DNA of 64,000 nucleotides, taken from Modestobacter roseus (GTDB lineage: Bacteria > Actinomycetota > Actinomycetes > Mycobacteriales > Geodermatophilaceae). Each line of letters starts with the position of its first letter. The first letter of the stretch is position 1. Below the pieces are notes generated by a model. That model saw only the letters and a program-made list of their open reading frames with translations. It was not told where the DNA came from and did not search any database. Positions 5,103 through 31,777 of the stretch are shown piece by piece. The stretch lies in assembly GCF_007994135.1 (NCBI RefSeq), contig NZ_VLKF01000001.1:620001-684000 (forward strand), in the 5' to 3' direction. Made by a program: the position numbers and the translations under genes.

Positions 5103-5105
5103 GAC

Positions 5106-5729
5106 GTGCACCTGATGGCCGCGTGGCAGCCGGTCACCCTGACCGGCCGGCTGGTGACCCTTTCACCGCTGTCCCTCGCCGACGCCCCCGACCTGGCGGT
5201 CGCCGCGGCCGACGGACGGCTGTGGGAGCTCTGGTACACCTCGGTGCCCACGCCCGAGGCCATGGCCGACGACGTGGCGGCCAAGCTCGCCGCGCAGGAG
5301 GCGGGCACGATGCTGCCCTTCGTCGTCCGCCGCCGCGGCACCGGTGACGCGCTCGGGGTGACGACGTACTGCAGCGTCGACCGGGAGACGCCGCGGCTGG
5401 AGATCGGCTACACCTGGACCCGGGCCTCGGCCCAGCGCACCGGGGTGAACACCGAGAGCAAGCTGCTGCTGCTGGCGCACGCCTTCGAGGTGCTCAGCTG
5501 CGTCGCCGTGGAGTTCCGCACGCACTGGCACAACCGGCAGTCCCGGACGGCGATCGCCGCGCTCGGCGCCCGGCAGGACGGCGTGCTGCGTGCCCACCGC
5601 CGGCAGCCCGACGGGTCGCTGCGGGACACCGTGGTCTTCTCCATCACCTCGACCGAGTGGCCGGCGGTGCGCAGCGACCTCCGCTCCCGCCTGGCCCGGC
5701 ACTCCGCACCCCCGTCTCCCCAGGCATAG
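5106..5729 (+). CDS. GNAT-family N-acetyltransferase (RimJ/RimL-like)
   Basis: 207 residues with the layout of RimJ/RimL-type acetyltransferases: LTGRLVTLSPLSLADAPDL at the N-terminus, a central YTWTRASAQRTGVNTESKLLLLAHAFEVL segment (acetyl-CoA loop region), then FRTHWHNRQSRTAIAALGA, typical of the family. The substrate is unknown. It starts 3 bases after def (GTG 5106; ATG 5115 is an alternative), so it is probably in that operon. It ends in TAG (5727-5729), followed at once by a terminator hairpin. Confidence 0.85.
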   Translation: MHLMAAWQPVTLTGRLVTLSPLSLADAPDLAVAAADGRLWELWYTSVPTPEAMADDVAAKLAAQEAGTMLPFVVRRRGTGDALGVTTYCSVDRETPRLEIGYTWTRASAQRTGVNTESKLLLLAHAFEVLSCVAVEFRTHWHNRQSRTAIAALGARQDGVLRAHRRQPDGSLRDTVVFSITSTEWPAVRSDLRSRLARHSAPPSPQA

Positions 5730-5731
5730 GA

Positions 5732-5775
5732 GGCTCTGCACCCGGTTCCGGGGCCGGAATCGGGTGCAGAGCCCC
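5732..5775 (+). terminator. Terminator-like hairpin before proA
   Basis: GGCTCTGCACCCG (5732-5744) pairs perfectly with CGGGTGCAGAGCC (5761-5773), with a further inner TTCCG/CGGAA stem. It begins 2 bases after the TAG stop of the acetyltransferase gene. There is no strong T tract, as is common in actinobacteria. Confidence 0.8.
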
Positions 5776-5797
5776 CTGTGCCTCGCCGGGCGCCGCG

Positions 5798-5812
5798 TAA
5801 CCTCGGCGCGTG
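5798..5812 (+). promoter_or_regulatory. -10 element placing proA on a leaderless mRNA
   Basis: TAACCT (5798-5803) lies 6 bases before the GTG start (5810). Transcription would begin at or next to the start codon, so no ribosome binding site is expected. The pattern recurs at nadD, degV, comEA, selD and others in this window. Confidence 0.65.
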
Positions 5813-7060
5813 TCCGACGCCGACTTCCCGCTGATCGGCGCCGCCGCGGCGCGTGCCCGCGAGGCCGCCCGCGTGCTGCGCACCCTTCCCACCGAGACCA
5901 AGGACGCCGCGCTGGCCGCGATGGCCGAGGCGCTGGTCGAACGGGCCGACGAGGTGCTGGCCGCCAACGCCGCCGACGTCGAGGCCGCGGCGGCCGACGG
6001 CACCCCCGACTCCGTGCTCGACCGGCTCCGGCTGGACCGGCCGCGGGTGGCGGGGGTGGCCGACGCGCTGCGTCAGCTGATCGCGCTGCCCGACCCGGTG
6101 GGCGACGTCGTCCGTGGGTCGACGCTGGCCAACGGGCTCCAGCTGCGCCAGGTCCGGGTGCCGCTCGGTGTGGTGGGCATCGTCTACGAAGCCCGCCCCA
6201 ACGTGACCGTCGACGCCGCGGGGCTGTGCCTGAAGAGCGGCAACGCGGCGCTGCTGCGCGGGTCGGCGTCGGCGCACCGCACCAACACCGCGCTGGTGGC
6301 CGTGCTCACCGAGGCCGCGGAGAAGGCCGGTCTGCCGGCCGGGTCGATCGCCCTGCTGCCCGCCGAGCGGGCGTCGGTGGGCGAGCTGCTGGCCGCCCGC
6401 GGGCTGGTCGACGTGGTCATCCCGCGCGGTGGGGCGTCGCTGATCCAGCGGGTCGTCCGCGAGGCCGTCGTGCCGGTGATCGAGACCGGGGTCGGCAACT
6501 GCCACGTCTACGTCGACGCCTCGGCCGATCCGGCGATGGCCGAGGCGATCGTGTTGAACGCCAAGACGTCCCGGGTCAGCGTGTGCAACTCCGCGGAGAC
6601 GCTGCTGGTGCACCGCGACGTCCCCTTCCTGCCGCGGCTGCTCACGGCCCTGGCCGAGGCGGGCGTGACGCTGCACGGCGACGACGCGGCCCGGGAGGCG
6701 CACGTCGGCGTCCTGCCGGCCACCGACGAGGACTGGGCGACCGAGTACTTGTCGCTGGACATGGCGGTGCGGGTGGTCGACGACCTCACCGGCGCGCTGG
6801 ACCACATCAGCCGGTGGGGGAGCGGGCACTCCGAGGCGATCGTCGCCGACTCCGCCGCGGCGATCGCCGCCTTCACCGCGGGGGTGGACGCCGCCGCGGT
6901 GCTGGTCAACGCCTCGACCCGGTTCACCGACGGGGGCGAGTTCGGCTTCGGTGCCGAGATCGGCATCTCGACCCAGAAGCTGCACGCGCGTGGACCGCTG
7001 GGCCTGCCGGAGCTGACCTCGACCACCTACGTGGTGACCGGCAGCGGCCACGTCCGCTGA
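5810..7060 (+). CDS. proA: Gamma-glutamyl phosphate reductase
   Basis: NADPH-dependent reduction of glutamyl 5-phosphate to glutamate semialdehyde, the second step of proline synthesis. It has 416 residues of the aldehyde dehydrogenase superfamily. Visible features are the [19 protein letters not shown] start of the nucleotide-binding core, the active-site Cys in [13 protein letters not shown] (about residue 260), and the family C-terminus [22 protein letters not shown]. It is separated from proB-def by a terminator and has its own -10. Confidence 0.96.
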
Positions 7061-10184: not shown

Positions 10185-10321
10185 CCGGGACCGGGGTCGG
10201 GGGAGAGGCAGCACCGGGCCACCGTCTCCGCTCACCGGGGCGGGTCGCCCGCCGTCGTCCACAGACGAGTGCTCCGTCCACAACCTGGCCGGACGCGGTG
10301 CGGACGTCAGCCCGACGTCCC

Positions 10322-10337
10322 TACCGTCCCCGGCGTG
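10322..10337 (+). promoter_or_regulatory. -10 element of comEA (leaderless)
   Basis: TACCGT (10322-10327), 7 bases, then GTG (10335). It decides the comEA start over the longer open frame. Confidence 0.6.
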
Positions 10338-11216
10338 CGCTCCTCCCCCCGTCCTGGCGATGACGACGTCATCCGTGCCCGGCTGCGGGCGCTGCTGGCG
10401 GAGGGGCAGCAGCGTCCGGGCGGGTGGGTTCCCGAGCCGGTCGACGAGGACGAGGAACCGCCGGACGGCGAGCAGCTCCCCGGGCCCCGGCGGCTGTGGG
10501 CGGCCGACGACCAGCGCACCACCCCGCTCGACGAGGCGGCCGACGAGCCGTCGCTGCCGGCCGGGCTGGGGCGCCACCGGGCACCGGGTCCGGCCGCGCG
10601 GGTGAGTCCTGGCCGGTCGGGCGCGTGGACGCTGTGGGCGGCGGCCGTCCTCGCCGCCGCGGCCGTGGTCGGCTGGACGTGGGCCGACCGGCCGACGGTG
10701 GACCAGGTACCCGCCGGGGCCAGTGTGGCGGTGCCGTCGGCCCCGTCGTCGGGCCCGGCGCCGGGGGTGCCGGAGAGCAGTGCGCCGGCGGCCGGCGCCG
10801 AGGTCGTGGTGTCGGTGATCGGCCAGGTCGCCTCGCCCGGGCTGGTCACCCTGCCCGCCGGGTCGCGGGTCGCGGACGCCCTCGCCGCCGTGGGGGGACT
10901 GCTGCCGGAGGCCGATCCGGCGTCGGTCAACGCAGCGGCCGTCCTCGTCGACGGCGAGCAGCTCGCGGTGGGCCTGCCGGGGGCGGTCGCCGGTCCCGCG
11001 GCGGCAGCCGGTGGACCGGCCGGTGGGCTGGTGGACCTCAACCGGGCCACCGTGGCCGAGCTGGACGCGCTGCCGGGCATCGGACCCGTGCTCGCCCAGC
11101 GGATCGTCGACCACCGGGACACCTCCGGGCCCTTCACCAGCGTCGAGCAGCTGGACGACGTGAGCGGCATCGGGCCGGCGGTCTACGCCGACCTGGTCGA
11201 CCGGGTCACGGTCTGA
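10335..11216 (+). CDS. comEA: ComEA-type DNA-binding protein
   Basis: DNA receptor of the natural transformation apparatus, anchored in the membrane. The 293-residue product has a cytoplasmic, charged N-terminus, one membrane segment (about 97-114, TLWAAAVLAAAAVVGW), a Pro/Ala linker, an SLBB domain (about 155-215, VSVIGQVASPGLVTLPAGSRV) and a C-terminal helix-hairpin-helix pair (VDLNRATVAELDALPGIGP) that binds duplex DNA. GTG 10335 is chosen for the -10 in front of it. It is coupled with comEC. Confidence 0.92.
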   Translation: MRSSPRPGDDDVIRARLRALLAEGQQRPGGWVPEPVDEDEEPPDGEQLPGPRRLWAADDQRTTPLDEAADEPSLPAGLGRHRAPGPAARVSPGRSGAWTLWAAAVLAAAAVVGWTWADRPTVDQVPAGASVAVPSAPSSGPAPGVPESSAPAAGAEVVVSVIGQVASPGLVTLPAGSRVADALAAVGGLLPEADPASVNAAAVLVDGEQLAVGLPGAVAGPAAAAGGPAGGLVDLNRATVAELDALPGIGPVLAQRIVDHRDTSGPFTSVEQLDDVSGIGPAVYADLVDRVTV

Positions 11217-11268: not shown

Positions 11269-14200
11269 GTGCGGGCCGAGGGCCGGTGGCGCTGGGTCGA
11301 CCTGCGGCTGGTCCCGGCGGCGGCCACGGTCTGGGTGCTGACGCTCCTCGCGCCGCACGCCGGGCCGCGGCTGCTCCTCACCGGTGCGGCCGGTGCCGCG
11401 GTGGCCGGGGCCGTGCTGCTCGCCGGGCACCGGGGGCACCGGTCCCCGGCGGCGCTGGTCCTGGTCGGGTGCCTGGCCGCGGCCACCGTCACCGCCGCGT
11501 TCGCCGGTGTGCGGGCGCAGGCCCGTGCCGATTCGCCACTGGCGGGGCTGGCCGAGCGAGGGGCGGTGGTCCCGCTGGTCGTCCGGCTCGGCTCGGATCC
11601 CCGGCCGCTGGCCGGCAGCCCCGAGCGGGTGCTGGTGACCGGCCGGGTCAGCGAGGTCGACGGCGTCCCGGCCGACGCGGGCCGGGTCCTGGTGTTCGGC
11701 CCGGCCGAGGAGTGGCGCGGACTGCTGCCCGGCCAACCGGTGGCGCTGCGGGCGTCCCTGCGCCCGGCCGGCCCGACCGACGAGGTGGTCGCGGTGCTGT
11801 CGGCGCGCTCCCCGCCCCGGCCGGTGGAGAGCGCGGGCCCGGTGCAGGGTGCGGCGGGCACGCTGCGCGCCGGGCTGTCCGCGTCGGCGGACCGCACCGT
11901 GCCCGATCCGGCGGGCGGGCTGCTGCCGGGCCTGGTCGTCGGCGACACCTCCGGGCTCGACCCGGTCCTCGTCGGGGAGTTCCGCCGGTCGGGGCTGTCC
12001 CACCTGCTCGCGGTCTCGGGCGCGAACGTGGCGATCGCGGTGGGGCTGGTGCTCGCCCCGCTCCGGGCGCGCGGGAGCGATCGGCGGGTGCAGGCGCTCG
12101 TGGGGGCGCTGGCGATCGCCGGGTTCGTGGTGCTGGCCCGCCCGGAGCCGAGCGTGCTGCGGGCGGCGGCCATGGGTGCGGTGGCGCTGCTGGCGCTGGC
12201 GTCGGGGCGCAGCCGGGTGGCCGTCCCGGCGCTGGCCGCGAGCGTGGTCGTGCTGCTGGTCGTCGACCCGGCGCTGGCGCGGGACCCGGGCTTCGCCCTG
12301 TCGGTCACCGCGACGGCCGCGATCGTGCTGCTCGCGCCCGGCTGGTCACGCCGGCTGCGGGCGCGCGGGGTGCCGCGGCCGGTCGCCGACGCGCTGGCGG
12401 TGAGCGCGGCGGCGGGGCTGGCCACCGCACCGCTGGTCGCGGCCCTCTCCGGTGCGGTCAGCCTGGTGTCGCTGCCGGCCAACCTCCTCGCGGCTCCGGT
12501 GGTCGCGCCGGCGACCGTGCTGGGGCTGCTGGCCGCGTTGGTCTCCCCGCTGACCGGGACGGGCGCGGATGCGCTCACCTGGCTGGCGGGGTGGCCGGTG
12601 CGCTGGCTGGTCCTCGTCGCCCGGACGGCGGCCGCCGTGCCCGACGGCGTCACCCCCTGGCCGACCGGCCGGACCGGCGCCATCGCCCTGGCGCTGGTGC
12701 TGGGGGCGGTCTGCTGGGCACTGGTCCGCTGGCCACGGCTGCGGGTGCTCGCCCTGGCCGCCGTGCTGGGCGCGGTCGTCGTGGGCTGGCCGCTGCGGCA
12801 GGCCGGGCGGGGCTGGCCGCTGCGGGAGACGGTGGTGGTCGCCTGTGACGTCGGGCAGGGGGACGCCCTGGTGTTCCCGACCGGGCCCGGGGAAGCGGTC
12901 CTGGTCGACGCCGGACCCGACCCCGCGCTGGCCGACGGGTGCCTGGACCGGCTCGGCATCGACCGGCTGCCGCTGGTGCTGCTCTCGCACCTGGACGCCG
13001 ACCACGTCGGGGGCCTGTCCGGCGCACTCGGCGGCCGGGAGGTGGGCGAGGTCGCCACCGGCACGCTCGCGCCGGACGAGGACCGGCTGCCGGAGCTGCT
13101 GGCGGTGCTGGACCAGCTGGGTGGCCGGCACACCGTGCTGCCGCCGGGGGAGCGGCGCGCCGTCGGTGGCGCGGTGTTCGACGCCCTGGCGCCGGATCCG
13201 GACGAGGCCGTCCGGGGCGGCGACGCCAACCAGCTCTCGCTCGTCGTCCGGGCGGAGGTCCGGGGGCTGCGGGTGCTGCTCACCGGCGACGTCGGGGAGG
13301 AGACCGAGGCCCGGCTGCGGAGGTCCGGGATCGACCTCACCGCCGACGTGCTCAAGGTGCCCCACCACGGCAGCGGCGACGTCGACCCGGAGTTCGTCGC
13401 CGCCACCGGTGCGCAGGTGGCGCTGACCTCCGTGGGTGCCGACAACACCTACGGCCACCCGGCCGCGACACTGCTGACGGCGCTGGCGGACGCCGGGATG
13501 CGCCACTACCGCACCGACCGGGACGGCGACGTGGCAGTGGTGGGCCGGGCGGGGGAGTGGGGCGTGGCGGTGCGGGGCCCGGACACCGTGCTGCGGGCGG
13601 CCGCCGGCCGGCCGACCCCGCTGCCGGCGGCGACCGTCCCGGTCCGGCGGGCGGCAGCACGGTCGTGTCGGTGGCGCGTGGCAGCATGGCGCCGTGGCCG
13701 CCGCACCCCCAGCCCCGACGTCCCGGTTGCGGCTGGTCGTGGGCGAGGAGGAGCTGCTGCGGGCCCGCGCCGTCTCCGCCGTCCGCGCCGCGGTCCGCGA
13801 CCGCCACCCCGACGTCGAGGAGCACGAGCTGGTCGCCGCCGGCCTGGAGCTCGGGCACCTGACCGAGGTGCTCTCACCCTCGCTGTTCGGGGGCCACCGG
13901 CTGGTCGTCGTCGCCGGCGCGCACGAGGCCGCGGCCGCGCTCGCCGACTCCCTCACCGGCTACCTGAAAGACCCGGACCCCGAGCTCACCCTGGTGCTGG
14001 TGCACAGCGGGGGGAAGCGGAACGAGGCGCTCCTCAAGTCCTTCAAGGCCGCCGGGGCCGCGGTCGACGAGTGCCCGAAGATCAGCTCGGCGGGGGAGCG
14101 GGTGGCCTTCGTCCGCAACGAGGTGCGTCACGCCGGCGGGCGGATCACCCCCGACGCCGTCACCGCCCTGCTCGACGCGGTCGGCAACGACCTGCGCGGG

Positions 14201-14331
14201 CTCTCCGCGGCGGCGAGCCAGCTGGTGTCGGACTTCGGCGGGAACATCGACGCCGACGACGTCGCCCGCTTCCACCGGGGGCAGGCGGAGGTCACCGGGT
14301 TCACCGTCGCCGAGCGGGTGCTGGTCGGTGA
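11269..14331 (+). CDS. comEC: ComEC/Rec2 DNA-uptake channel, reading frame runs into holA
   Basis: Polytopic membrane protein that passes single-stranded DNA into the cytoplasm. From GTG 11269 (GGAGG at 11256-11260; GTG 11218 also possible) come several N-terminal membrane segments, an outer domain, the Competence domain (LLAVSGANVAIAVGLVLAP) and a C-terminal metallo-beta-lactamase-like domain (DVGQGDALVFPTG, SHLDADHVGGL, LKVPHHGSGD). Recognisable homology ends near 13615 (about 780 residues). No stop follows: the frame continues 638 bases over holA as an Arg/Gly/Pro-rich tail typical of out-of-frame high-GC DNA. Either the gene really overlaps holA, or a small indel hides the true stop. Confidence 0.85.
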   Translation: MRAEGRWRWVDLRLVPAAATVWVLTLLAPHAGPRLLLTGAAGAAVAGAVLLAGHRGHRSPAALVLVGCLAAATVTAAFAGVRAQARADSPLAGLAERGAVVPLVVRLGSDPRPLAGSPERVLVTGRVSEVDGVPADAGRVLVFGPAEEWRGLLPGQPVALRASLRPAGPTDEVVAVLSARSPPRPVESAGPVQGAAGTLRAGLSASADRTVPDPAGGLLPGLVVGDTSGLDPVLVGEFRRSGLSHLLAVSGANVAIAVGLVLAPLRARGSDRRVQALVGALAIAGFVVLARPEPSVLRAAAMGAVALLALASGRSRVAVPALAASVVVLLVVDPALARDPGFALSVTATAAIVLLAPGWSRRLRARGVPRPVADALAVSAAAGLATAPLVAALSGAVSLVSLPANLLAAPVVAPATVLGLLAALVSPLTGTGADALTWLAGWPVRWLVLVARTAAAVPDGVTPWPTGRTGAIALALVLGAVCWALVRWPRLRVLALAAVLGAVVVGWPLRQAGRGWPLRETVVVACDVGQGDALVFPTGPGEAVLVDAGPDPALADGCLDRLGIDRLPLVLLSHLDADHVGGLSGALGGREVGEVATGTLAPDEDRLPELLAVLDQLGGRHTVLPPGERRAVGGAVFDALAPDPDEAVRGGDANQLSLVVRAEVRGLRVLLTGDVGEETEARLRRSGIDLTADVLKVPHHGSGDVDPEFVAATGAQVALTSVGADNTYGHPAATLLTALADAGMRHYRTDRDGDVAVVGRAGEWGVAVRGPDTVLRAAAGRPTPLPAATVPVRRAAARSCRWRVAAWRRGRRTPSPDVPVAAGRGRGGAAAGPRRLRRPRRGPRPPPRRRGARAGRRRPGARAPDRGALTLAVRGPPAGRRRRRARGRGRARRLPHRLPERPGPRAHPGAGAQRGEAERGAPQVLQGRRGRGRRVPEDQLGGGAGGLRPQRGASRRRADHPRRRHRPARRGRQRPARALRGGEPAGVGLRREHRRRRRRPLPPGAGGGHRVHRRRAGAGR

Positions 14332-14692
14332 CACCGCCGGGTCGGTGGAGATGCTGCGGTGGGCGCTGGACCGCGGCGTGGCGCACGTGCTGATCGCCGA
14401 CGCCCTCGCCGACGGCGTGCGCACCGCGGCCCGGGTCGCGTCGCTGAACACCTCGAACATCGGTGAGCTCGCCCGGCAGCTGAAACTGCCGCCGTGGAAG
14501 GTCAAGAAGGCGCAGAGCCAGGCCCGCGGCTGGAGCATCGACGCGCTGCAGCAGGCGATCGGCGTGGCCGCCGAGCTGAACGCCGACGTCAAGGGTGCGG
14601 CGGCCAGCGCCGACTACGCCCTCGAGCGGGCGGTGCGCCGGATGGTGGCCATCCGGGCCGCCGGCGGCGGACGGTCCGGCGCCGGCCGCTGA
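13694..14692 (+). CDS. holA: DNA polymerase III subunit delta
   Basis: Clamp-loader subunit that opens the beta sliding clamp. 332 residues, normal length, with RLRLVVGEEELLRARAVSAV at the start, the actinobacterial LVLVHSGGKRNEALLKSFKAAGA segment and the helical C-terminal collar (LKLPPWKVKKAQSQARGWS). GTG 13694 is the first plausible start; CAGCAT six bases upstream may serve as -10. The comEA-comEC-holA-rpsT order is typical of actinobacteria. Its first two thirds are overlapped by the comEC frame. Confidence 0.94.
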   Translation: MAAAPPAPTSRLRLVVGEEELLRARAVSAVRAAVRDRHPDVEEHELVAAGLELGHLTEVLSPSLFGGHRLVVVAGAHEAAAALADSLTGYLKDPDPELTLVLVHSGGKRNEALLKSFKAAGAAVDECPKISSAGERVAFVRNEVRHAGGRITPDAVTALLDAVGNDLRGLSAAASQLVSDFGGNIDADDVARFHRGQAEVTGFTVAERVLVGDTAGSVEMLRWALDRGVAHVLIADALADGVRTAARVASLNTSNIGELARQLKLPPWKVKKAQSQARGWSIDALQQAIGVAAELNADVKGAAASADYALERAVRRMVAIRAAGGGRSGAGR

Positions 14693-14756
14693 GCCCACGC
14701 GCCGACGTCCTCGACCCACGGCCAGGCCGGCCGGTCCCGGTCCGTCAGACCGGCGA

Positions 14757-14821
14757 GGCCCGACGGACCGGGCCACCACATGCGTCGGGCCCCCGCTCCC
14801 GGAGGTGGAGTGAGGGCCCGA
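14757..14821. terminator. Bidirectional terminator region between holA and rpsT
   Basis: Two hairpins in the convergent gap: GGCCCG/CGGGCC (14757-14774) and TCGGGCCC (14785-14792) with GGGCCCGA (14814-14821), the latter extended by an imperfect inner stem. They can serve holA on the top strand and rpsT on the bottom strand. Confidence 0.75.
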
Positions 14822-14854
14822 GGTGCCAGCGGTGCGGGGCACCGCTGCGGTCGC

Positions 14855-15115
14855 TCAGAGAGAGGCGACCTTCTTGGCCAGCGCCGACTTGCGGTTGGCG
14901 GCCTGGTTCTTGTGGATGATGCCCTTGCTGGCGGCCTTGTCCAGCGCCTTGCTGGCGGTCTGGAGCGCGGTGGTCGCCGCTTCCTTGTCCCCGGCGTCGG
15001 CGGCCGCGCGGAAGCGACGCACCTGCGTCTTCAGGGCGGACTTGACCGCGACGTTGCGCTGACGCGCGATCTCGTTGGTCTTGATCCGCTTGATCTGGGA
15101 CTTGATGTTCGCCAC
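14855..15115 (-). CDS. rpsT: 30S ribosomal protein S20
   Basis: Primary 16S rRNA-binding protein of the small subunit. 86 residues with the S20 signature [20 protein letters not shown] at the N-terminus and [20 protein letters not shown] at the C-terminus. The frame is open upstream, but GTG 15115 gives the canonical start. It is divergent from lepA, with a candidate -10 TATCTT on the reverse strand near 15200 that would give a leader of roughly 75 nt. Confidence 0.96.
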
Positions 15116-15302
15116 GCGTGAGCCTCGGATGTCTCGCAGGGAGGTGTACTTCTGACAGTGCGTCCACGGCACGACGAATCGCCTGCGGACCGGCCTCACA
15201 AGATACCAGGAAGTCGCAGGGCCCCCCAACCCGCGTCGCGGGCGGCGGCGCCCCGCCGGGCGATCGCCTTACCCGGGGCAGCCGTGGGACGATGGCGGCA
15301 CT

Positions 15303-17147
15303 GTGACGACTCCTGCCTCCACCGATCCCGCCCGGATCCGGAACTTCTGCATCATCGCCCACATCGACCACGGCAAGTCGACGTTGGCCGACCGGATGCT
15401 CGAGGTGACCGGGATCGTCGAGGGGCGCCAGATGCGCGCCCAGTACCTCGACCGCATGGACATCGAGCGTGAGCGCGGCATCACCATCAAGGCGCAGAAC
15501 GTGCGCCTGCCGTGGACCCCGCGATCCGGGCCGCTGGCCGGCGACGAGTACGTGCTGGACATGATCGACACCCCCGGCCATGTCGACTTCACCTACGAGG
15601 TGTCCCGGTCGCTGGCCGCTTGCGAGGGCGCGGTGCTGCTGGTCGACGCCGCGCAGGGGATCGAGGCCCAGACGCTGGCGAACCTGTACCTGGCGCTGGA
15701 GAACGACCTCACGATCATCCCGGTGCTGAACAAGATCGACCTGCCGGCCGCCCAGCCGGAGAAGTACGCCGCCGAGATCGCCCACATCATCGGCTGCGAA
15801 CCGGACGACGTGCTGCGGGTCAGCGGCAAGACCGGTGAGGGCGTCGCCGAGCTGCTGGACACGATCGTGGAGAAGATCCCGGCTCCGGTCGGCGACGCCG
15901 ACGCCCCGGCCCGCGCGATGATCTTCGACTCGGTCTACGACATCTACCGCGGCGTCATCACCTACGTCCGCGTCGTCGACGGCCGGATCAGCGGCCGCGA
16001 GCGGATCAAGATGATGTCCACCGGCGCGGTCCACGAGCTGCTGGAGATCGGCGTGATCTCCCCGGAGCCCAAGCCGGTCCCGGCGCTCGGCGTCGGCGAG
16101 GTCGGCTACTTCATCACCGGGGTGAAGGACGTCCGCCAGTCCCGCGTCGGTGACACCGTGACCCTGCAGCACAAGCCGGCCAGCGAGCCGATCGGCGGCT
16201 ACAGCGACCCCAAGCCGATGGTCTACTCCGGCCTCTACCCGATCGACGGCAGCGAGTACCAGCTGCTGCGGGAGTCGCTGGACAAGCTGCTGCTCAACGA
16301 CGCGGCGCTGGTCTACGAGCCGGAGACCTCTGCGGCCCTGGGCTTCGGCTTCCGGGTCGGCTTCCTCGGCCTGCTGCACCTGGAGATCGTCCGCGAGCGG
16401 CTGGAGCGCGAGGCGGGCATCAGCCTGATCTCCACCGCGCCCAACGTCGTCTACCGGGTGGTGATGGAGGACCGGTCCGAGGTCGTCGTCACCAACCCCA
16501 GCGACTGGCCCAGCGGGAAGATCGACAAGGTCTACGAGCCGATCGTGAACGCCACGATCATCGCCCCCAGCGACTACACCGGCGCGATCATGGAGCTCTG
16601 CCAGAGCCGGCGCGGGTCGCTGACCGGCATGGACTACCTCTCCGAGACCCGGGTCGAGCTGCGCTACACGCTGCCCCTGGGCGAGATCATCTTCGACTTC
16701 TTCGACGCGCTGAAGTCGCGCACCCGCGGCTACGCCTCGCTGGACTACGCCGAGGCCGGGGAGCAGGAGTCGAAGCTGGTCAAGGTCGACATCCTGCTGC
16801 AGGGCGAGGCCGTCGACGCCTTCTCCGCGATCGTGCACGCCGACAAGGCCTACAGCTACGGCGTGCTGATGGCCGGCAAGCTGCGCGAGCTCATCCCGCG
16901 CCAGCAGTTCGAGGTGCCCATCCAGGCCGCCGTCGGCTCCCGGGTGATCGCCCGCGAGACGGTGCGCGCCATCCGCAAGGACGTCCTCGCCAAGTGCTAC
17001 GGCGGTGACATCACCCGCAAGCGGAAGCTGCTGGAGAAGCAGAAGGAGGGCAAGAAGCGGATGAAGATGGTCGGCCGCGTCGAGGTCCCCCAGGAGGCGT
17101 TCGTCGCCGCGCTCTCCACCGGCGAGCCCACCAGCGCGAAGAAGTGA
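15303..17147 (+). CDS. lepA: Elongation factor 4 (LepA)
   Basis: Ribosomal GTPase that remodels or back-translocates stalled or maturing ribosomes. 614 residues: G domain ([15 protein letters not shown] near 19, [14 protein letters not shown]), EF-G-like domains II, III and V, and the LepA-specific C-terminal domain ([16 protein letters not shown]). GTG 15303. It is divergent from rpsT. In many actinobacteria lepA is followed by hemW and hrcA; here about 13 kb of extra genes lie between lepA and hemW. Confidence 0.97.
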
Positions 17148-18828: not shown

Positions 18829-19830
18829 TCACCGCACGACGACGGCGAACTCCTGCTGCTCCACGAACTCCCCGATCACCGGTGCGCCGAGCACCTCACC
18901 GCCGAGCAGCAGCCCGCCGGAGGTCTGCGCGTCGGCCAGCAGCAGCGCCTCCTCCTCGCCGACGGCGGACAGGTCGGTGTGCGGGCGCACCCAGTCGAGG
19001 TTCCGCCGGGTGCCGCCGGAGACGTAGCCCGCGGCGAGCGCCTCGCGCGCGCCGGTCAGGTAGGGGACGGCGGCGGCGTCGACCACCGCGGTCACCCCGC
19101 TGGCCCGCGCCATCTTGTACAGGTGGCCGAGCAGGCCGAACCCGGTGACGTCGGTGCCGGCGCGGATCCCGGCGGCGACGGCGGCGCGGGAGGCCTCGGC
19201 GTTGAGCGTGGTCATCGCGGCGAGCGCCTCCGCGGACACCTCCCCGGTGGCCTTCATCCGGTTGTTCAGCACGCCGACGCCCAGCGGCTTGGTCAGCGAC
19301 AGCGGCGTGCCGGCGACCGCGCCGGCGTTGGTGATGATCCGGTCGAGGTCGACCAGCCCGCTGACGGCCATGCCGTACTTGGGCTCCGGGTCGTCGATGG
19401 AGTGCCCGCCCCCGACGTGGCAGCCGGCCTGGTGGGCGATCTCCAGGCCGCCGCGCAGCACCTCGGCGGCCAGCTCCGCGGGGAGCACGTCGCGGGGCCA
19501 GCCGAGCAGGTTGACCGCCACGACCGGGGTGCCGCCCATGGCGTAGACGTCGGAGAGGGCGTTGGCCGCGGCGATCCGGCCGAAGTCGTAGGCGTCGTCG
19601 ACCACCGGGGTGAAGAAGTCGGTGGTGAGCACCAGGCCCTGGCCTCCCGGGAGGCGGACGACGGCGGCGTCGTCGCCGTCGTCCAGCCCGACGACGAGCT
19701 GCGCGGCGGGGTCGACCGGGCCGGTGGCGGTGAGGCCGGCCACGACGGCCTCGAGCTCGCCGGGCGGGATCTTGCAGGCGCAGCCGCCTCCGTGGGCGAA
19801 CTGGGTGAGCCGGATCGCAGTGGCGGTCAT
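18829..19830 (-). CDS. selD: Selenide, water dikinase (selenophosphate synthase)
   Basis: Makes selenophosphate from selenide and ATP, the selenium donor for Sec-tRNA formation. 333 residues; the N-terminus reads IRLTQFAHGGGCACKI, giving Cys17 and Lys20 in the same positions as the E. coli catalytic pair, so this is the Cys-type enzyme rather than a selenoprotein. AIRS-like glycine-rich motifs follow (LTTDFFTPVVDD, GGHSIDDPEPKYG). Reverse-strand TAGATT (19843-19838) ends 7 bases before the ATG, making it leaderless. It is divergent from the tRNA-Sec gene. Confidence 0.96.
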   Translation of the reverse strand: MTATAIRLTQFAHGGGCACKIPPGELEAVVAGLTATGPVDPAAQLVVGLDDGDDAAVVRLPGGQGLVLTTDFFTPVVDDAYDFGRIAAANALSDVYAMGGTPVVAVNLLGWPRDVLPAELAAEVLRGGLEIAHQAGCHVGGGHSIDDPEPKYGMAVSGLVDLDRIITNAGAVAGTPLSLTKPLGVGVLNNRMKATGEVSAEALAAMTTLNAEASRAAVAAGIRAGTDVTGFGLLGHLYKMARASGVTAVVDAAAVPYLTGAREALAAGYVSGGTRRNLDWVRPHTDLSAVGEEEALLLADAQTSGGLLLGGEVLGAPVIGEFVEQQEFAVVVR

Positions 19831-19891: not shown

Positions 19892-19987
19892 GGAGACGTC
19901 AGGGTGCCTGGTGGCCCCCGCGGCCTCTAAAGCCGACGTGGCCGAGCAACTCGGTCAGGCGGGTTCGATTCCCGTCCGTCTCCGCCA
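19892..19987 (+). tRNA. selC: Selenocysteine tRNA with anticodon CUA (reads UAG)
   Basis: 96 nt with encoded G73-CCA (19984-19987). Acceptor GGAGACG (19892-19898) pairs with CGTCTCC (19977-19983); an eighth position is a U/C mismatch. The D-stem has 6 pairs, GGG(u)GCC/GGCCCC with a UGGU loop (19902-19918) and one bulged U, the long D-stem typical of tRNA-Sec. The anticodon stem is CGGC/GCCG and the loop CTCTAAA, giving U33, anticodon CTA (19927-19929) and A37. The variable arm is long, TGGCCGAG/CTCGGTCA (19939-19957). T-stem GCGGG/CCCGT (19959-19975) with loop TTCGATT. The shape and neighbouring selD identify tRNA-Sec; the anticodon predicts insertion at UAG instead of UGA. Confidence 0.95.
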
Positions 19988-26568: not shown

Positions 26569-27879
26569 ATGACGACCGACCCCCGCCGCGCAGTGCCGCG
26601 CACCGACACCGTCCTCGCCGAGCCGCAGGTCGCCGCCGCCGTCGCCCGGCTGGGGCGGGACCTGGTCAAGACCGCGGTGCAGGCCGCGCAGCAGCAGGTG
26701 CGCGAGGGGGCACTGGCCCCGGACGACGTCGTCCCCGCGGTGCTGGACGGGCTGCCGGGCAGCACCAGCAGCCTGCGTCCGGTGCTCAACGCCACCGGGG
26801 TGCTGGTGCACACCAACCTCGGCCGGGCGCCGCTGTCGCCGGCGGCCGTGGACGCCGTCGTGGCCGCCAGCGGGACCACCGACGTGGAGATCGACCTGGC
26901 CACCGGCCGCCGCGGGCCGCGCGGGGAGGGGGCGCTCGGCGCGCTGCTGGACGCCGTCCCCGCCGCGGGGGCCGCGCTGGTGGTGAACAACTGCGCCGCC
27001 GCGCTGGCCCTGGTCGCCACCGCGCTCGGTGGTGAGCTGGTCATCGCCCGCGGCGAGCTGGTCGAGATCGGCGACGGCTTCCGCATCCCCGAGCTGATCA
27101 CCAGCACCGGCGCGCGGCTGCGTGAGGTCGGCACGACCAACCGGGTCGCCGTCGCCGACTACACCGGCGCGCTGGGACCGGACACCGGCGCCGTGCTCAA
27201 GGTGCACCCGTCGAACTTCGTCGTCCGCGGGTTCACCCGGTCCGCCGACGTCGCCGAGCTGTCCACCGCGCTGGCCGGCACCGGCGTGCCGCTGGTCGCC
27301 GACGTGGGCAGCGGGCTGCTGCGCCCGCACCCGCTGCTGCCCGACGAGCCGGACCTGCAGACCACCCTCGCCGGCGGCGCCGACCTGGCGCTGTGCAGCG
27401 GGGACAAGCTGCTCGGCGGGCCGCAGGCCGGGATCGTGCTCGGCCGCGCGGAGCTGGTCCAGCGGCTGCGCCGGCACCCCCTGTACCGCGCGCTGCGGGT
27501 GGACAAGACGACGCTCGCCGCCCTGGAGGCCACGCTGCGCGGGCCGGTGCCGCCGGTGCGCCGGATGCTGGACGCCGACCTCGCCGGGCTGCGTGCCCGC
27601 GCCGCCGCCGTCGCGGCGGCCCTCCGCGCGCGGGGCGTGGAGGCCGACGCCGTCGAGGCCACCGCCCGGGTCGGCGGCGGGGGAGCGCCGGAGTTCGAGC
27701 TCCCCAGCGCCGCGGTGGCCGTGCCGCTGGCCTTCGCCGGCCCGCTGCGGGCCGCGAGCACCCCGGTGGTCGGGTACGCCGCCGGTGACCGCACGCACCT
27801 GGACCTGCGCAGCCTGGCCCCCGCCGACGACGAGCGGCTGACCGCGATGGTGCTGGAGGTGGCGGCCACGTGGACGTGA
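26569..27879 (+). CDS. selA: L-seryl-tRNA(Sec) selenium transferase
   Basis: PLP enzyme converting Ser-tRNA-Sec to Sec-tRNA-Sec with selenophosphate. 436 residues, slightly short of the E. coli enzyme (463). Helical N-terminal tRNA-binding part, then RPVLNATGVLVHTNLGRAPL, and the PLP lysine Lys280 in LCSGDKLLGGPQAG. ATG 26569. It overlaps selB by 10 bases. Its tRNA (anticodon CUA) is encoded 6.6 kb upstream; SelA recognises the tRNA body rather than the anticodon, so an anticodon change is tolerable (family knowledge). Confidence 0.96.
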   Translation: MTTDPRRAVPRTDTVLAEPQVAAAVARLGRDLVKTAVQAAQQQVREGALAPDDVVPAVLDGLPGSTSSLRPVLNATGVLVHTNLGRAPLSPAAVDAVVAASGTTDVEIDLATGRRGPRGEGALGALLDAVPAAGAALVVNNCAAALALVATALGGELVIARGELVEIGDGFRIPELITSTGARLREVGTTNRVAVADYTGALGPDTGAVLKVHPSNFVVRGFTRSADVAELSTALAGTGVPLVADVGSGLLRPHPLLPDEPDLQTTLAGGADLALCSGDKLLGGPQAGIVLGRAELVQRLRRHPLYRALRVDKTTLAALEATLRGPVPPVRRMLDADLAGLRARAAAVAAALRARGVEADAVEATARVGGGGAPEFELPSAAVAVPLAFAGPLRAASTPVVGYAAGDRTHLDLRSLAPADDERLTAMVLEVAATWT

Positions 27880-29615
27880 TCGCGACCGCCGGCCACGTCG
27901 ACCACGGCAAGTCGACCCTGGTGCGGGCGCTGACCGGGATGGAGCCCGACCGGTGGGAGGAGGAGCGCCGGCGCGGCCTCACCATCGACCTCGGCTTCGC
28001 CTGGACGACGCTGCCCGGCGGCCGCCGGCTCGCCGTGGTGGACGTGCCCGGCCACGAGCGGTTCGTCGGCAACATGCTCGCCGGCGTCGGCTCCGTGCCG
28101 GCCGCGCTGGTCGTGGTGGCCGCCGACGACGGCTGGTCGGCGCAGACCGCCGAGCACGTGGCCGTGCTGGACGCGCTCGGGGTGCGGCACGGGCTGCTCG
28201 CCGTCACCAAGGCCGACCTCGCCGACCCCGGCCCGGCGCTCGCCGACGCCACCGAACGGCTGGCCGGCACCTCGCTGGGGCGGCTGCCGGCGGTGGCCGT
28301 CAGCGCCCGCAGCGGGGCGGGGGTGCCGGAGCTCACCGCCGCCCTGGAGGGCGTGCTGGCGGCGCTGCCGGCGCCGGACCCGGCCGCGGCGGTGCGGCTG
28401 TGGGTCGACCGGGCCTTCACCATCCGCGGCGCCGGCACCGTGGTCACCGGCACGCTCGCCGCCGGCACCGTGCGCGCCGGGGACCGCTTCGCCCTCGGCG
28501 ACCGCGAGGTGACCGTGCGCGGGCTGCAGTCGCTCGGGGCGCCGGTCGAGTCGGCGACGGCCACCGCCCGGGTGGCGCTGAACCTGCGCGGGGTGGCGGT
28601 CGAGGAGATCGCCCGCGGAGACGCGCTGCTCACCCCGGGCGCGTTCCGCCGCACCGCGGAGCTGGACGTCTCCCTCGCCACCCCGACCGAGGACCGGCTG
28701 CCGGCAGAGCTGGTGGTGCACATCGGCTCGGCCACCGTCTCGGCGCGGGTGCGCCCGCTGGACGGGTCGGCGCTGCGGCTGCGGCTGAGCGCGGAGCTGC
28801 CGCTGCGGGTCGGCGACCGGCTGCTGCTGCGCGACCCCGGCGCCCGCCGGGTGCTCGGGGCCGACGTGCGCGACGTCGACCCGCCGGAGCTGCGCCGCCG
28901 CGGGGCGGCCCGGTCACGGGGCGCGGAGCTGGCCGGGCAGCCGGCGGGGGAGGCCGGTGCGCTGGCCGACCTGACGCGGCGCCGGTTCGTGCGGCGGGCG
29001 GACTTCGTCGCGATGGGCTGGCCGGTGCCCGCCGACGCGACCGAGGTGGGGCCGTGGCTGATCGCGCCGGGGCTGGCCGACGAGCTCGCCGCGCGGGTCC
29101 CGCAGGTGGTGGCCCGCTACCGGCAGCTGCGTCCGCTGGAGACCGGTCCGCCGATCGCGGTGCTGCGCTCGGCGCTCGAGCTGCCCGACGCCGACCTGGT
29201 GCCGGCGGTGGTGCGGCCGCCGCTGGCGCTGCGCGACGGCCGGGTCGTCGCCGGGAGCGCCGGGCTGCCGCCGCACGTGCAGCGGGCGGTCGACGAGGTG
29301 CGCGCGCGGCTGGCCGGGGCCCCGTTCGCGGCGCCCGAGGCACCGGACCTCGTCGCCGCCGGGCTCGGCCCGCGGGAGCTGGCGGCCGCGGTGCGCGACG
29401 AGCAGCTGGTCCGGATCGCCGAGGGGATCTACCTCGCGCCCGGCGTGGCCGAGGAGGCGCGGCGCCGGCTGGCCGGCCTGCCGCAGCCGTTCACCCTCAG
29501 CGACGCGCGCAAGGCCTGGGACACCACGCGCCGGGTCGCCGTCCCGCTGGCCGAGTGGCTGGACGCGCGCGGGGTCACCGTGCGGCAGCCGGACAACACC
29601 CGCCGGCTGCGCTGA
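27870..29615 (+). CDS. selB: Selenocysteine-specific elongation factor
   Basis: GTPase delivering Sec-tRNA to the ribosome at a Sec codon marked by a SECIS hairpin. 581 residues: EF-Tu-like G domain (ATAGHVDHGKSTLVRAL, DVPGHERFVGNMLAG, TKAD), two beta-barrel domains, and C-terminal winged-helix repeats (about 360-581) that bind SECIS RNA. GTG 27870 inside the selA end, so translation is coupled. Together with tRNA-Sec(CUA) it should act at UAG. Confidence 0.95.
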   Translation: MDVIATAGHVDHGKSTLVRALTGMEPDRWEEERRRGLTIDLGFAWTTLPGGRRLAVVDVPGHERFVGNMLAGVGSVPAALVVVAADDGWSAQTAEHVAVLDALGVRHGLLAVTKADLADPGPALADATERLAGTSLGRLPAVAVSARSGAGVPELTAALEGVLAALPAPDPAAAVRLWVDRAFTIRGAGTVVTGTLAAGTVRAGDRFALGDREVTVRGLQSLGAPVESATATARVALNLRGVAVEEIARGDALLTPGAFRRTAELDVSLATPTEDRLPAELVVHIGSATVSARVRPLDGSALRLRLSAELPLRVGDRLLLRDPGARRVLGADVRDVDPPELRRRGAARSRGAELAGQPAGEAGALADLTRRRFVRRADFVAMGWPVPADATEVGPWLIAPGLADELAARVPQVVARYRQLRPLETGPPIAVLRSALELPDADLVPAVVRPPLALRDGRVVAGSAGLPPHVQRAVDEVRARLAGAPFAAPEAPDLVAAGLGPRELAAAVRDEQLVRIAEGIYLAPGVAEEARRRLAGLPQPFTLSDARKAWDTTRRVAVPLAEWLDARGVTVRQPDNTRRLR

Positions 29616-29697: not shown

Positions 29698-30483
29698 TCA
29701 GTCGCCGGCCGGCACCCAGCGGGCCGGGCGCTTCTCCCGGAACGCGGCGATGCCCTCCTGACCCTCTGCGGAGGCGAACGCCCGGGCGGACAGCTCGGCC
29801 AGCTCCGGGAACCGGCCGGCGAGGTCGTCACCGCCACGGAGCAGCCGCTTGGTCGCCGCCAGCGCTGCCGGCGCACCGGCCGCCAGCGCGCTGACCTGGG
29901 CGGCCACGGTGGCGTCCACCTCGTCGTCGGGCACCGCGAGGTCGACCAGCCCCGCGGACGCCGCGGTGGCGGCATCGAAGACCTCGCCGGTGAGCATCAG
30001 CCGGTGGGCGGCGTGCGGCTGCATCCGCGGGCGGCAGACCGCGGAGATCACCGCCGGCACCAGCCCGAGCCGCACCTCGCTGAAGGCGAAGGACGCCGAC
30101 GCCCCGGCGACGACGACGTCGCAGGCCGCCGCCAGCCCCACCCCGCCGGCCCGGGCCGGACCCCGGACGACGGCGACCACCGGCTTGGGCGCGTGCCACA
30201 GCCGGTCCAGCAGCTCGGGGAACTCGCGCACCCCCTGGTCGCTGCTCGCCCCGCCGGTGGCCTCGCGCAGGTCCATCCCCGAGCAGAACACCCGCCCGGT
30301 GTGGTCGAGCACGACCACCCGCACCGCGTCGTCGGCCAGTGCGTCGTCCAGGGCGCCGCGGAGCTGGGCGCGCAGGGCCCGGGAGAGCGCGTTGCGGTCG
30401 GCGGGGGAGTCCAGCGTCAGCCGGGCCACCCCGGCGGAGACGTCGACGGTGAGCACGCGGTCGTCGCTGGTCGCGGAGGTCAC
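29698..30483 (-). CDS. Enoyl-CoA hydratase/isomerase family protein
   Basis: 261 residues of the crotonase fold: DSPADRNALSRALRAQL, the first oxyanion loop GRVFCSGMDLREA and the second GPARAGGVGLAAACDVVVA. GTG 30483 has AGGA at good spacing; ATG 30504 is a longer alternative without a ribosome site. Position-specific catalytic Glu residues are not both evident, so hydratase versus isomerase is open. It is divergent from hemW. Confidence 0.87.
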   Translation of the reverse strand: MTSATSDDRVLTVDVSAGVARLTLDSPADRNALSRALRAQLRGALDDALADDAVRVVVLDHTGRVFCSGMDLREATGGASSDQGVREFPELLDRLWHAPKPVVAVVRGPARAGGVGLAAACDVVVAGASASFAFSEVRLGLVPAVISAVCRPRMQPHAAHRLMLTGEVFDAATAASAGLVDLAVPDDEVDATVAAQVSALAAGAPAALAATKRLLRGGDDLAGRFPELAELSARAFASAEGQEGIAAFREKRPARWVPAGD

Positions 30484-30532
30484 CCCGGCATCCTGCCGGG
30501 ACATCGCGCGCGGCGGTCACACTGGAGGGCAC

Positions 30533-31777
30533 ATGACTGCCAGCCTGCCCCTGCTCACCGGTGCCCGCGCGAGCGACCCGGTGCTGCCGGCCGACCCGGC
30601 GATGCTCCCCGACAGCGCCCGGGCCGGCCTGGCCACCACCCCGTTCGGCCTGTACGTGCACGTGCCGTTCTGCGCGACCCGCTGCGGCTACTGCGACTTC
30701 AACACCTACACCTCCGACGAGCTCGGCCCGGGCGCCAACCGCAGCGAGTACGCGGCCACCGCGATCGCCGAGCTGCGGCTGGCCGCCGAGGTGCTGGGCC
30801 CGGACCGGCCCGCGGTGCAGACCGTCTTCGTCGGCGGCGGCACCCCCACGCTGCTGCCGGCCGGCGACCTGGTCGCGGTGATGGACGCCGTCCGGGAGCT
30901 GTTCCCCGTGGCGCCCGGCATGGAGGTGACCACCGAGGCCAACCCGGAGTCGGTCACCCCGGAGTCGCTGGCCGTGCTGCGCGAAGGCGGCTTCACCCGG
31001 ATCAGCCTGGGCATGCAGTCCGCCGCCGAGCACGTGCTCGCCGTGCTCGACCGCCGGCACACCCCCGGCCGGGCGGTGCAGGCCGCCGCCGAGGCGCGCG
31101 CCGCCGGCTTCGAGCACGTGAACCTCGACCTGATCTACGGCGCGCCGGGGGAGACCGACGCCGACTGGCAGGCCTCGCTGGACGCCGTCCTCGCCGCGCC
31201 GGTCGACCACGTCAGCGCCTACGCGCTGATCGTCGAGCAGGGCACCCGGCTGGCCCGCCGGGTCGCCCGCGGCGAGCTGCCGATGCCGGACGACGACGTG
31301 CTCGCCGACCGGTACGAGCAGGCCGACCGCGCGTTCGGCGGCGCAGGTCTGGGCTGGTACGAGGTGTCCAACTGGGCGCGCGACCGGGCCGCCCGCTGCC
31401 GGCACAACGAGCTGTACTGGGCCAACGCCAACTGGTGGGGGATCGGGCCCGGCGCGCACTCGCACGTCGGTGGGCTGCGCTGGTGGAACGTCAAGCACCC
31501 GGCCGCCTACGCCGACCGGCTCGCCTCCGGAGAGCACCCGGCGGCCAACGTCGAGTTGCTCACCCCCGCCGACCAGGCGCTGGAACGGGTGATGCTGGGG
31601 CTCCGGCTGCGCGACGGGCTGCCGCTCACCGCGCTCAGCGAGGCCGGCCGCGCCCGTGCGGCGGAGTCGGTCGTCCGCGGGCTGCTGGAACCGGCGGCGC
31701 ACACCGGCGGGCGGGCGGTGCTGACCGACCGCGGCCGGCTGCTCGCCGACGCCGTCGTCCGCGACCTGACGGATTAG
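30533..31777 (+). CDS. hemW: HemW, heme chaperone (radical SAM)
   Basis: Radical-SAM relative of coproporphyrinogen dehydrogenase that now functions as a heme-trafficking protein. 414 residues; the iron-sulfur motif is C47-ATR-C51-GY-C54 followed by DF, and the HemW C-terminal domain follows. ATG 30533 after GGAGGG. The frame is open for 680 bases upstream but that is the shadow of the divergent gene. Stop TAG (31775-31777). In related genomes hemW lies between lepA and hrcA. Confidence 0.94.
   Translation: MTASLPLLTGARASDPVLPADPAMLPDSARAGLATTPFGLYVHVPFCATRCGYCDFNTYTSDELGPGANRSEYAATAIAELRLAAEVLGPDRPAVQTVFVGGGTPTLLPAGDLVAVMDAVRELFPVAPGMEVTTEANPESVTPESLAVLREGGFTRISLGMQSAAEHVLAVLDRRHTPGRAVQAAAEARAAGFEHVNLDLIYGAPGETDADWQASLDAVLAAPVDHVSAYALIVEQGTRLARRVARGELPMPDDDVLADRYEQADRAFGGAGLGWYEVSNWARDRAARCRHNELYWANANWWGIGPGAHSHVGGLRWWNVKHPAAYADRLASGEHPAANVELLTPADQALERVMLGLRLRDGLPLTALSEAGRARAAESVVRGLLEPAAHTGGRAVLTDRGRLLADAVVRDLTD

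What the first reader, a model, noticed from the sequence alone, without database searches (positions are those of the whole stretch)
19892..19987. tRNA-Sec with anticodon CUA: selenocysteine at UAG instead of UGA
The tRNA has the hallmarks of tRNA-Sec (6-bp D-stem with 4-nt loop, long 8-bp variable arm, encoded GCCA, next to selD) and its seven-base anticodon loop CTCTAAA gives U33-CUA-A37. It should therefore read UAG. UAG-directed selenocysteine has been reported in Geodermatophilus and Blastococcus, so the recoding itself is known, but this locus is a complete example with selD, selA and selB within 10 kb. Unusual details are a bulged U in the D-stem and a U/C mismatch at the eighth acceptor pair.
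Basis: partly seen in the sequence, partly recalled or inferred. Interest (0 to 1): 0.95.

Follow-up and report, generated by a model that had tools for sequence, protein, structure and literature searches.

The report
UAG-coded selenocysteine, switched at least twice
This actinobacterium carries a selenocysteine tRNA that matches the stop codon UAG instead of the usual UGA, and its formate dehydrogenase gene has UAG exactly at the selenocysteine position, so it is predicted to insert selenium at UAG; the code was already known from its family, but the follow-up found what is likely a second, independent switch in a distant Coriobacteriia genome.

Summary
Window 19892-19987(+) is a tRNA-Sec (Rfam 65.6 bits, cut-off 47) with anticodon CUA, beside selD and 6.6-9.6 kb from selA-selB. 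No other tRNA-Sec was found in the genome. Three of its genes carry in-frame TAG at the Sec site: formate dehydrogenase alpha, followed by a hairpin with loop GGUCU, and two UGSC proteins. This is the UAG-selenocysteine code already published for Geodermatophilaceae; the window (probably Modestobacter) is a new member of a known kind.

What goes further: (1) In 112 family genomes, all FdhA matches spanning the Sec site have one TAG, none TGA; listed matches in the rest of the order have TGA or no stop. (2) fdhA changed codon at least four times in separate gene lineages. (3) The codon before UAG is the rare ATA (86 of 86); before UGA it is mostly ATT. (4) A Coriobacteriia metagenome-assembled genome has selA-selB-tRNA-Sec(CUA) with TAG in grdA and grdB, while all 20 GrdB matches in 11 relatives have TGA: a likely independent second switch, of which my searches found no report. 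No selenium incorporation was measured.

The parts
19892..19987 (+). tRNA-Sec gene (selC) with encoded GCCA
   Evidence: Rfam RF01852 65.6 bits, gathering score 47; only tRNA-Sec found in the genome
19927..19929 (+). anticodon CTA (CUA), within loop CTCTAAA
   Evidence: sequence; ARAGORN anticodon cta
18829..19830 (-). selD, selenide-water dikinase (Cys form, HGGGCACK)
   Evidence: TIGR00476 383.7 bits, cut-off 125
26569..27879 (+). selA, L-seryl-tRNA(Sec) selenium transferase
   Evidence: TIGR00474 402.3 bits, cut-off 267.9
27870..29615 (+). selB, Sec-specific elongation factor; overlaps the selA end
   Evidence: TIGR00475 277.9 bits, cut-off 242.25; Pfam EF-Tu GTPase, SelB beta-barrel and SelB-wing_3 domains

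Best explanation
The window encodes a selenocysteine tRNA with anticodon CUA together with SelD, SelA and SelB, and the same genome has UAG at the selenocysteine site of formate dehydrogenase and of two UGSC proteins, so the organism is predicted to read these UAG codons as selenocysteine. Inferred steps, from the established bacterial pathway: SerRS charges the tRNA with serine, SelA turns it into Sec with selenophosphate from SelD, and SelB carries it to a UAG that is followed by a SECIS hairpin, in competition with release factor 1. UAG is still found as the last codon of an ordinary gene, so the hairpin rather than the codon alone would mark Sec. Shown by sequence: the tRNA, the three genes, the in-frame TAGs, the fdhA hairpin, and that TAG at this site marks the family while the related families examined use TGA or Cys. 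Inferred: charging, incorporation, and the competition with RF1. The coupling of UAG to a preceding ATA codon is shown as a pattern; its function (a P-site or 5' context that favours SelB over RF1) is a hypothesis.
For: tRNA-Sec fold and CUA. One tRNA-Sec found in the genome. fdhA at G000:C1:4027021-4030344 reads through with one TAG, residue 187, in QARI-U-HSATVPGLG, and matches NF041513 at 1945.9 bits. Stem GGTCCCC/GGGGACC with loop GGTCT begins 11 bases after the TAG; folded, z -2.19; across 17 distinct family sequences, from 30 loci, 119 of 119 cells pair, with a C-G to G-C/G-U exchange at one pair. Two UGSC genes with TAG, NF041046 141.2 and 158.3 bits, cut-off 125. Family: 100 of 112 genomes match FdhA; 98 have a row spanning residue 187, and all those rows show exactly one TAG, none TGA (counted by eye); that the TAG is at the Sec residue was read in 42 fetched genes and, by pattern, in 86 places of 74 of 75 family genomes. 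Order (397 genomes): in the rows listed, TAG only inside the family. 90 of 115 stretches found by a tRNA(CTA) pattern in genome contigs carry this family's anticodon arm. A hemN-like gene, 29849-31777, ends in TAG.
Against: No protein or 75-Se data for this organism. The hairpins after the two UGSC TAGs are not more stable than shuffles (z -0.20 and -0.36). Two of the 100 matching family genomes (G034, G080) have no row over the Sec site, one G080 row has a TAG elsewhere, and 12 of 112 have no FdhA match. Release factor genes and SerRS were not examined. The ATA rule: on supported branches there are only 4 independent pairs, 3 going the same way and 1 without difference, sign test p 0.25; 3 of 24 fetched TGA genes also have ATA.
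Confidence: 0.94

Rival explanations
1. The tRNA is a pyrrolysine tRNA, as ARAGORN labels it, and UAG means pyrrolysine.
For: ARAGORN calls tRNA-Pyl, but it gave that name to every CUA tRNA it found as well.
Against: The covariance model picks tRNA-Sec; 8-bp variable arm; the genes around it are selD, selA, selB; the TAGs sit where homologues have TGA or, in four fetched, TGC for Cys. Pyl genes were not searched for.
Confidence: 0.01
2. It is an ordinary serine-inserting amber suppressor derived from tRNA-Sec, and FdhA is made with serine or not at all.
For: tRNA-Sec is charged with serine first (established pathway), and no selenium was measured.
Against: selA and selB are intact and above cut-off; one TAG in every FdhA row over the site in 98 family genomes; the SECIS stem is kept by paired changes. 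Published 75-Se labelling in Geodermatophilus and Blastococcus is recalled from the abstract of Mukai 2016, not read here.
Confidence: 0.03
3. The TAGs are pseudogene mutations and the system is decaying.
For: None found.
Against: One TAG over the site in 98 family genomes; same residue and following hairpin in the 42 TAG genes read in detail; in this genome the rest of the frame is open to its end.
Confidence: 0.01
4. For the Coriobacteriia case: the TAGs and CUA tRNA come from misassembly or from UGA having been reassigned in that genome, not from an independent UAG-Sec code.
For: It is a single metagenome-assembled genome, and only 1 of 138 genomes of its family has the CUA pattern. The region after its grdA and grdB TAGs does not fold better than shuffles (z -0.06, 0.50, 0.83).
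Against: Three features agree on one contig: CUA anticodon, TAG in grdB and TAG in grdA. All 20 other GrdB rows, in 11 relatives, show one TGA, read at the Sec motif in 18 of the 19 fetched, and the 10 tRNA-Sec found in 8 of 10 relatives tested have TCA. UGA is still a stop there: 18 of 151 ORFs of at least 150 aa in 218 kb, against 10 of 120 in a UGA-Sec relative.
Confidence: 0.1

Closest known systems
UAG-selenocysteine system of Geodermatophilus and Blastococcus (Mukai et al. 2016, Angew Chem; recalled, not held; cited in PMC5330540 section 17)
   Same: Same family, tRNA-Sec with CUA, TAG-containing formate dehydrogenase and UGSC proteins.
   Different: Another genus (probably Modestobacter: nearest named locus L053, 91.8% over 5010 bases). 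Seen here across the family rather than in a few genomes.
Canonical bacterial UGA-Sec system (selABCD)
   Same: Same tRNA family, SelA, SelB, SelD, FdhA; SECIS hairpin 3' of the codon, loop GGUCU or AGUCU in most fdhA of both kinds.
   Different: Anticodon CUA not UCA; Sec codon UAG not UGA; the codon before it in fdhA ATA, not mostly ATT.
Glycine reductase selenoproteins GrdA/GrdB of Coriobacteriia (UGA)
   Same: The Coriobacteriia genome G112 has the same GrdB Sec motif as its relatives and both proteins match their families.
   Different: In G112 both Sec codons are TAG and the tRNA is CUA; in the relatives tested GrdB has TGA and the tRNA UCA.

Membership tests
Bacterial tRNA-Sec (RF01852) | Covariance-model score above gathering threshold | tested here: met
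   65.6 vs 47 bits
Bacterial tRNA-Sec (RF01852) | 6-bp D-stem with 4-nt loop, long variable arm, G73 and CCA | tested here: met
   sequence; the D-stem has one unpaired U
Bacterial tRNA-Sec (RF01852) | 8-bp acceptor stem | tested here: inconclusive
   7 pairs plus a U8-C66 mismatch in 90 of 90 family tRNAs
Bacterial tRNA-Sec (RF01852) | Charged by SerRS and converted by SelA | not testable with these tools
   needs biochemistry
UAG-Sec code of Geodermatophilaceae | Anticodon CUA and no UCA tRNA-Sec in the genome | tested here: met
   genome 99.83% complete
UAG-Sec code of Geodermatophilaceae | Selenoprotein genes with in-frame TAG at the Sec site | tested here: met
   fdhA and two UGSC genes
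UAG-Sec code of Geodermatophilaceae | SECIS hairpin after the TAG | tested here: met
   fdhA: 7-bp stem, paired changes; UGSC genes: not better than shuffles
UAG-Sec code of Geodermatophilaceae | Selenium incorporated at UAG | not testable with these tools
   needs 75-Se labelling or mass spectrometry
tRNA-Pyl | pylS and pyl biosynthesis genes | not tested

The most novel reading that the evidence does not exclude
UAG-selenocysteine has arisen at least twice among actinobacteria: once at the base of Geodermatophilaceae (formate dehydrogenase) and once recently in a Coriobacteriia lineage (glycine reductase A and B). In the first, Sec is specified by more than the stop codon: the codon before it must suit the stop that is read, ATA before UAG and ATT before UGA, and this pairing was set anew each time an fdhA lineage changed codon.
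Probability: 0.5. Interest if true: 0.8.

Novelty: new member of a known kind. Interest (0 to 1): 0.6.

Why it matters
A change of a codon's meaning needs the tRNA and every gene that uses the codon to change together. Here the change can be studied from both sides: a family where at least four fdhA lineages each differ in codon from TGA relatives, next to families that kept TGA, and what looks like a second, more recent switch in one Coriobacteriia genome whose relatives use UGA. It makes the order of events and the role of the preceding codon directly testable, and it warns that gene finders using the standard code will truncate these selenoproteins and that ARAGORN names the tRNA tRNA-Pyl.

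Tried and rejected
UGA reassignment as the reason for the Coriobacteriia switch: rejected, UGA ends 18 of 151 sampled ORFs. Rarity of the stop codon as a common cause: not supported. Of 14 window genes plus fdhA (some labels mine), 14 of 15 end in TGA and 1 in TAG, whereas in G112 TAG (33) is commoner than TGA (18). More fdhA-like SECIS in this genome: pattern for TAG plus loop CGGTCTG, 31 matches against 38 for the reversed control; 30 were examined with flanks (one had no locus): fdhA has a 7-bp stem with long open frames on both sides, the next best stems are 6 and 5 bp with short frames. The UGSC pattern gave 11 matches against 56 for its control; two are UGSC genes. 24 of the 115 tRNA pattern matches in genome contigs hold no tRNA-Sec by Rfam. 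One origin of all TAG fdhA genes: rejected by AU test, p 4e-37, quick tree; the tree cannot tell later gene transfer from old paralogues recoded together. One search stopped with an error and was rerun; one search was in the wrong frame (grdA was then read); one search's GrdB pattern found nothing and was corrected; one search chose wrong frames and was redone; the tRNA regular expression matched nothing and was replaced, where the one for the Coriobacteriia relatives also matched nothing (their sequences are printed). Paper searches: Geodermatophilus + selenocysteine + UAG 1 paper, Facile Recoding citations, 'selenocysteine' + 'Coriobacteri' + 'UAG' 0, 'Modestobacter' + 'selenocysteine' 0; the listing (glycine reductase, selenocysteine, amber; 12 papers) shows no title on such a case, but I did not open those papers for it. 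sought work on the codon before the Sec codon: 0 and 2 papers; passages of one bear on RF2 competition, not on UAG. Of PMC8124441, PMC7609411 and PMC10778597 I saw passages, of PMC5330540 passages and section 17.

Full report
What was claimed and what is there. The 96 bases at 19892-19987(+) are a tRNA-Sec gene: Rfam RF01852 at 65.6 bits against a gathering score of 47. ARAGORN agrees on the ends and on anticodon cta but prints tRNA-Pyl, as it does for other CUA tRNAs. The loop is CTCTAAA, the D-stem has six pairs with one unpaired U and loop UGGU, the variable arm has eight pairs, and GCCA is encoded. selD lies 61 bases away on the other strand; selA and selB overlap each other 6.6 kb downstream; all pass their NCBIfam cut-offs, and SelB has a SelB winged-helix domain at its end.

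The genome. The window is G000:C1:620001-684000 of a 4.5-Mb genome, 99.83% complete. One tRNA-Sec was found; the other hit over the Rfam cut-off, 49.7 bits, is a tRNA-Ser with anticodon TGA. A search for molybdopterin oxidoreductases matched three genes, one of them with an in-frame TAG. Read with TAG as Sec it is one frame of 1108 residues with Sec at 187 in QARI-U-HSATVPGLG, a full match to the actinobacterial formate dehydrogenase model NF041513. Right after the TAG comes CACTCCGCGAC and then GGTCCCC-GGTCT-GGGGACC, z -2.19 when folded. A pattern for TAG followed by codons for Gly-Ser-Cys gave 11 matches, fewer than its reversed control (56); two of them are genuine UGSC-family genes, NF041046 at 141.2 and 158.3 bits over a cut-off of 125, with TAG at the U. 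Three UAG selenoprotein genes are therefore predicted here. UAG also ends at least one ordinary gene of the window, a hemN-like gene at 29849-31777.

The family. FdhA was sought in 112 genomes of the family: 100 match, and every row that spans residue 187 has exactly one TAG and no TGA; G034 and G080 have no such row (one G080 row, outside the site, has a TAG), so 98 of 98 testable genomes have TAG (counted by eye). That this TAG is the Sec codon was read in 42 fetched genes and, by pattern, in 74 of 75 family genomes of the order-wide scan. In 397 genomes of the order, the listed rows outside the family have TGA, or no stop at all (four of these fetched: TGC for Cys); none has TAG; one has a TAA and one a second TGA besides; the list was cut by the tool. 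In a scan of genome contigs for a CUA tRNA-Sec pattern, 90 of 115 stretches carry the family's anticodon arm, one of them (L116) cut by a contig end. By title all but three of these (L034, L047, L080) are named as this family or its genera; Rfam was run on those three and confirms tRNA-Sec, and on L116, where nothing reached the threshold, but not on the others. The remaining 25 are one Coriobacteriia tRNA-Sec and 24 stretches in which Rfam finds no tRNA-Sec. The U8-C66 mismatch is in 90 of 90 complete family tRNAs (window included) and the unpaired D-stem base in all 90 (U 74, C 16); the D-stem itself shows U-G, U-A and C-G at one pair.

How often the codon changed in fdhA. 70 FdhA proteins (42 TAG, 24 TGA, 4 TGC; 30's loci and 40 that I chose from the rows) were put in a tree. 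TAG needs five changes, of which well supported branches force at least four; one clade of all TAG genes is rejected (AU p 4e-37). This is a quick tree with SH-aLRT support only. It shows separate changes in separate gene lineages; it cannot tell whether later-arriving genes were converted or several old copies were converted together.

The codon before. Among 237 nucleotide columns around the Sec codon, the one most tied to TAG against TGA is the base just before it: A in 42 of 42 TAG genes, T in 21 and A in 3 of 24 TGA genes, G or C in 4 of 4 Cys genes. The codon is ATA before TAG in 86 of 86 family matches from 74 of 75 family genomes of the order-wide pattern scan; the listed matches with TGA outside the family are 52 ATT and 1 ATC of 53 (11 further listed non-family rows have TGG in place of the stop and were not counted; more rows were not listed). 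Elsewhere in the same TAG genes Ile is ATC 1553, ATA 24, ATT 4, and GC at third positions just upstream is 98%. So a rare codon is held in place when a Sec codon follows, and it differs by which stop is used. Against a strong claim: only four independent pairs exist on supported branches, three agreeing and one uninformative, p 0.25; both UGSC genes have GAT before TAG, and in the Coriobacteriia case the codons are ACT and GTT, so the rule, if it is one, is for fdhA. I take it as a hypothesis about competition between SelB and the release factor. In E. coli, RF2 and Sec-tRNA compete at UGA (start of abstract and passages of PMC4513850).

A second switch. L121 (JAUNNF010000009.1, a Coriobacteriia metagenome-assembled genome, handle G112) has selA, selB and a tRNA-Sec with CUA in a row (64.2 bits), followed by a YedF-like gene (my label) and selD, and preceded by glycine reductase genes (grdA and grdB tested by family, the other grd and trx labels are mine). 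In L170 grdB has TAG at 5945-5947 in TST-U-GTCTRCG and grdA at 10448-10450 in STECFV-U-TSAGAM; both match their families, as do SelA, SelB and SelD. In the 138 genomes of its family 12 have GrdB: G112 with TAG, and 20 rows in 11 others all with one TGA, read at the Sec motif in 18 of 19 fetched. Ten tRNA-Sec genes in 8 of 10 of these relatives have TCA; two gave none. Only G112 has the CUA pattern. By eye its tRNA differs from the Geodermatophilaceae one in most stems, so a transfer of the tRNA from there is unlikely. UGA and UAG both remain stops in G112: TAA 100, TAG 33, TGA 18 of 151 sampled ORFs; four of the 15 genes listed at this locus end in TAG. Weak point: the region after the two TAGs does not fold better than shuffles, though the segment GTTGC-GGK-GCAAC after grdB is the same in all 12 sequences aligned, of 20 fetched, UGA ones included.

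Comparison with what is known. UAG for Sec in this family, with FDH and UGSC proteins, is in print: PMC5330540 section 17 (read), citing Mukai et al. 2016 (not held; its 75-Se labelling in Geodermatophilus and Blastococcus is recalled from its abstract). A review passage also names UAG, UAA and sense codons for Sec (PMC10778597). The window is a further member. I found no paper on UAG-Sec in Coriobacteriia or on the preceding codon with the searches, but the 2016 metagenome survey could not be read and may contain such a tRNA.

Verdict. The observation and the reading are right; the locus is a new member of a published code variant. The follow-up facts, TAG throughout the family's testable fdhA genes, repeated change in fdhA lineages, the ATA/ATT pairing and a likely second origin, are what a specialist would want to test.

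Noticed in passing
L121 / L170 (G112, JAUNNF010000009.1): grdB 4895-6208, grdA 10319-10795, selA 12293-13690, selB 13681-15612, tRNA-Sec(CTA) 15597-15693, selD 16310-17338 of L170: Likely independent UAG-selenocysteine system in a Coriobacteriia genome, with TAG at the Sec site of both grdA and grdB; the tRNA gene overlaps the end of selB.
   Followed up: yes
fdhA loci L134-L163 and L227-L266, codon before the Sec codon: ATA before TAG in 42 of 42 genes, ATT (21) or ATA (3) before TGA in 24, GTG/GTC before TGC in 4.
   Followed up: partly
L271 1210-1752 (+) and L273 1264-1908 (-), window's own genome: Two UGSC-family selenoprotein genes with TAG at the U; standard-code annotation would truncate them.
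   Followed up: partly
L115 and L133 (Blastococcus endophyticus, NZ_JABGCI010000003.1): Two family-type tRNA-Sec(CTA) genes about 59 kb apart on one contig.
   Followed up: no
L066, L117, L124, L131, L098, L046: Ordinary-type tRNAs (Rfam RF00005) with a CTA anticodon by ARAGORN in Planctomycetota, Thermoguttaceae, Microbacteriaceae, Aenigmatarchaeota, Erysipelotrichaceae and a Deltaproteobacteria record: possible amber suppressor tRNAs.
   Followed up: no
L197, L213, L221 at 1501: Near-identical TAGGAGGCTTTGCACCCGGTCTG-like stretches at three places in the window's genome, with GGGTGCAAAG downstream in two and a near form in the third: perhaps a repeat element at gene ends.
   Followed up: no
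L034 (UNVERIFIED Bacillus sp. AZ43), L047 (Jatrophihabitans MAG), L080 (Frankiales MAG): Carry the Geodermatophilaceae-type tRNA-Sec(CTA), so these records are probably misnamed or hold sequence of that family.
   Followed up: partly
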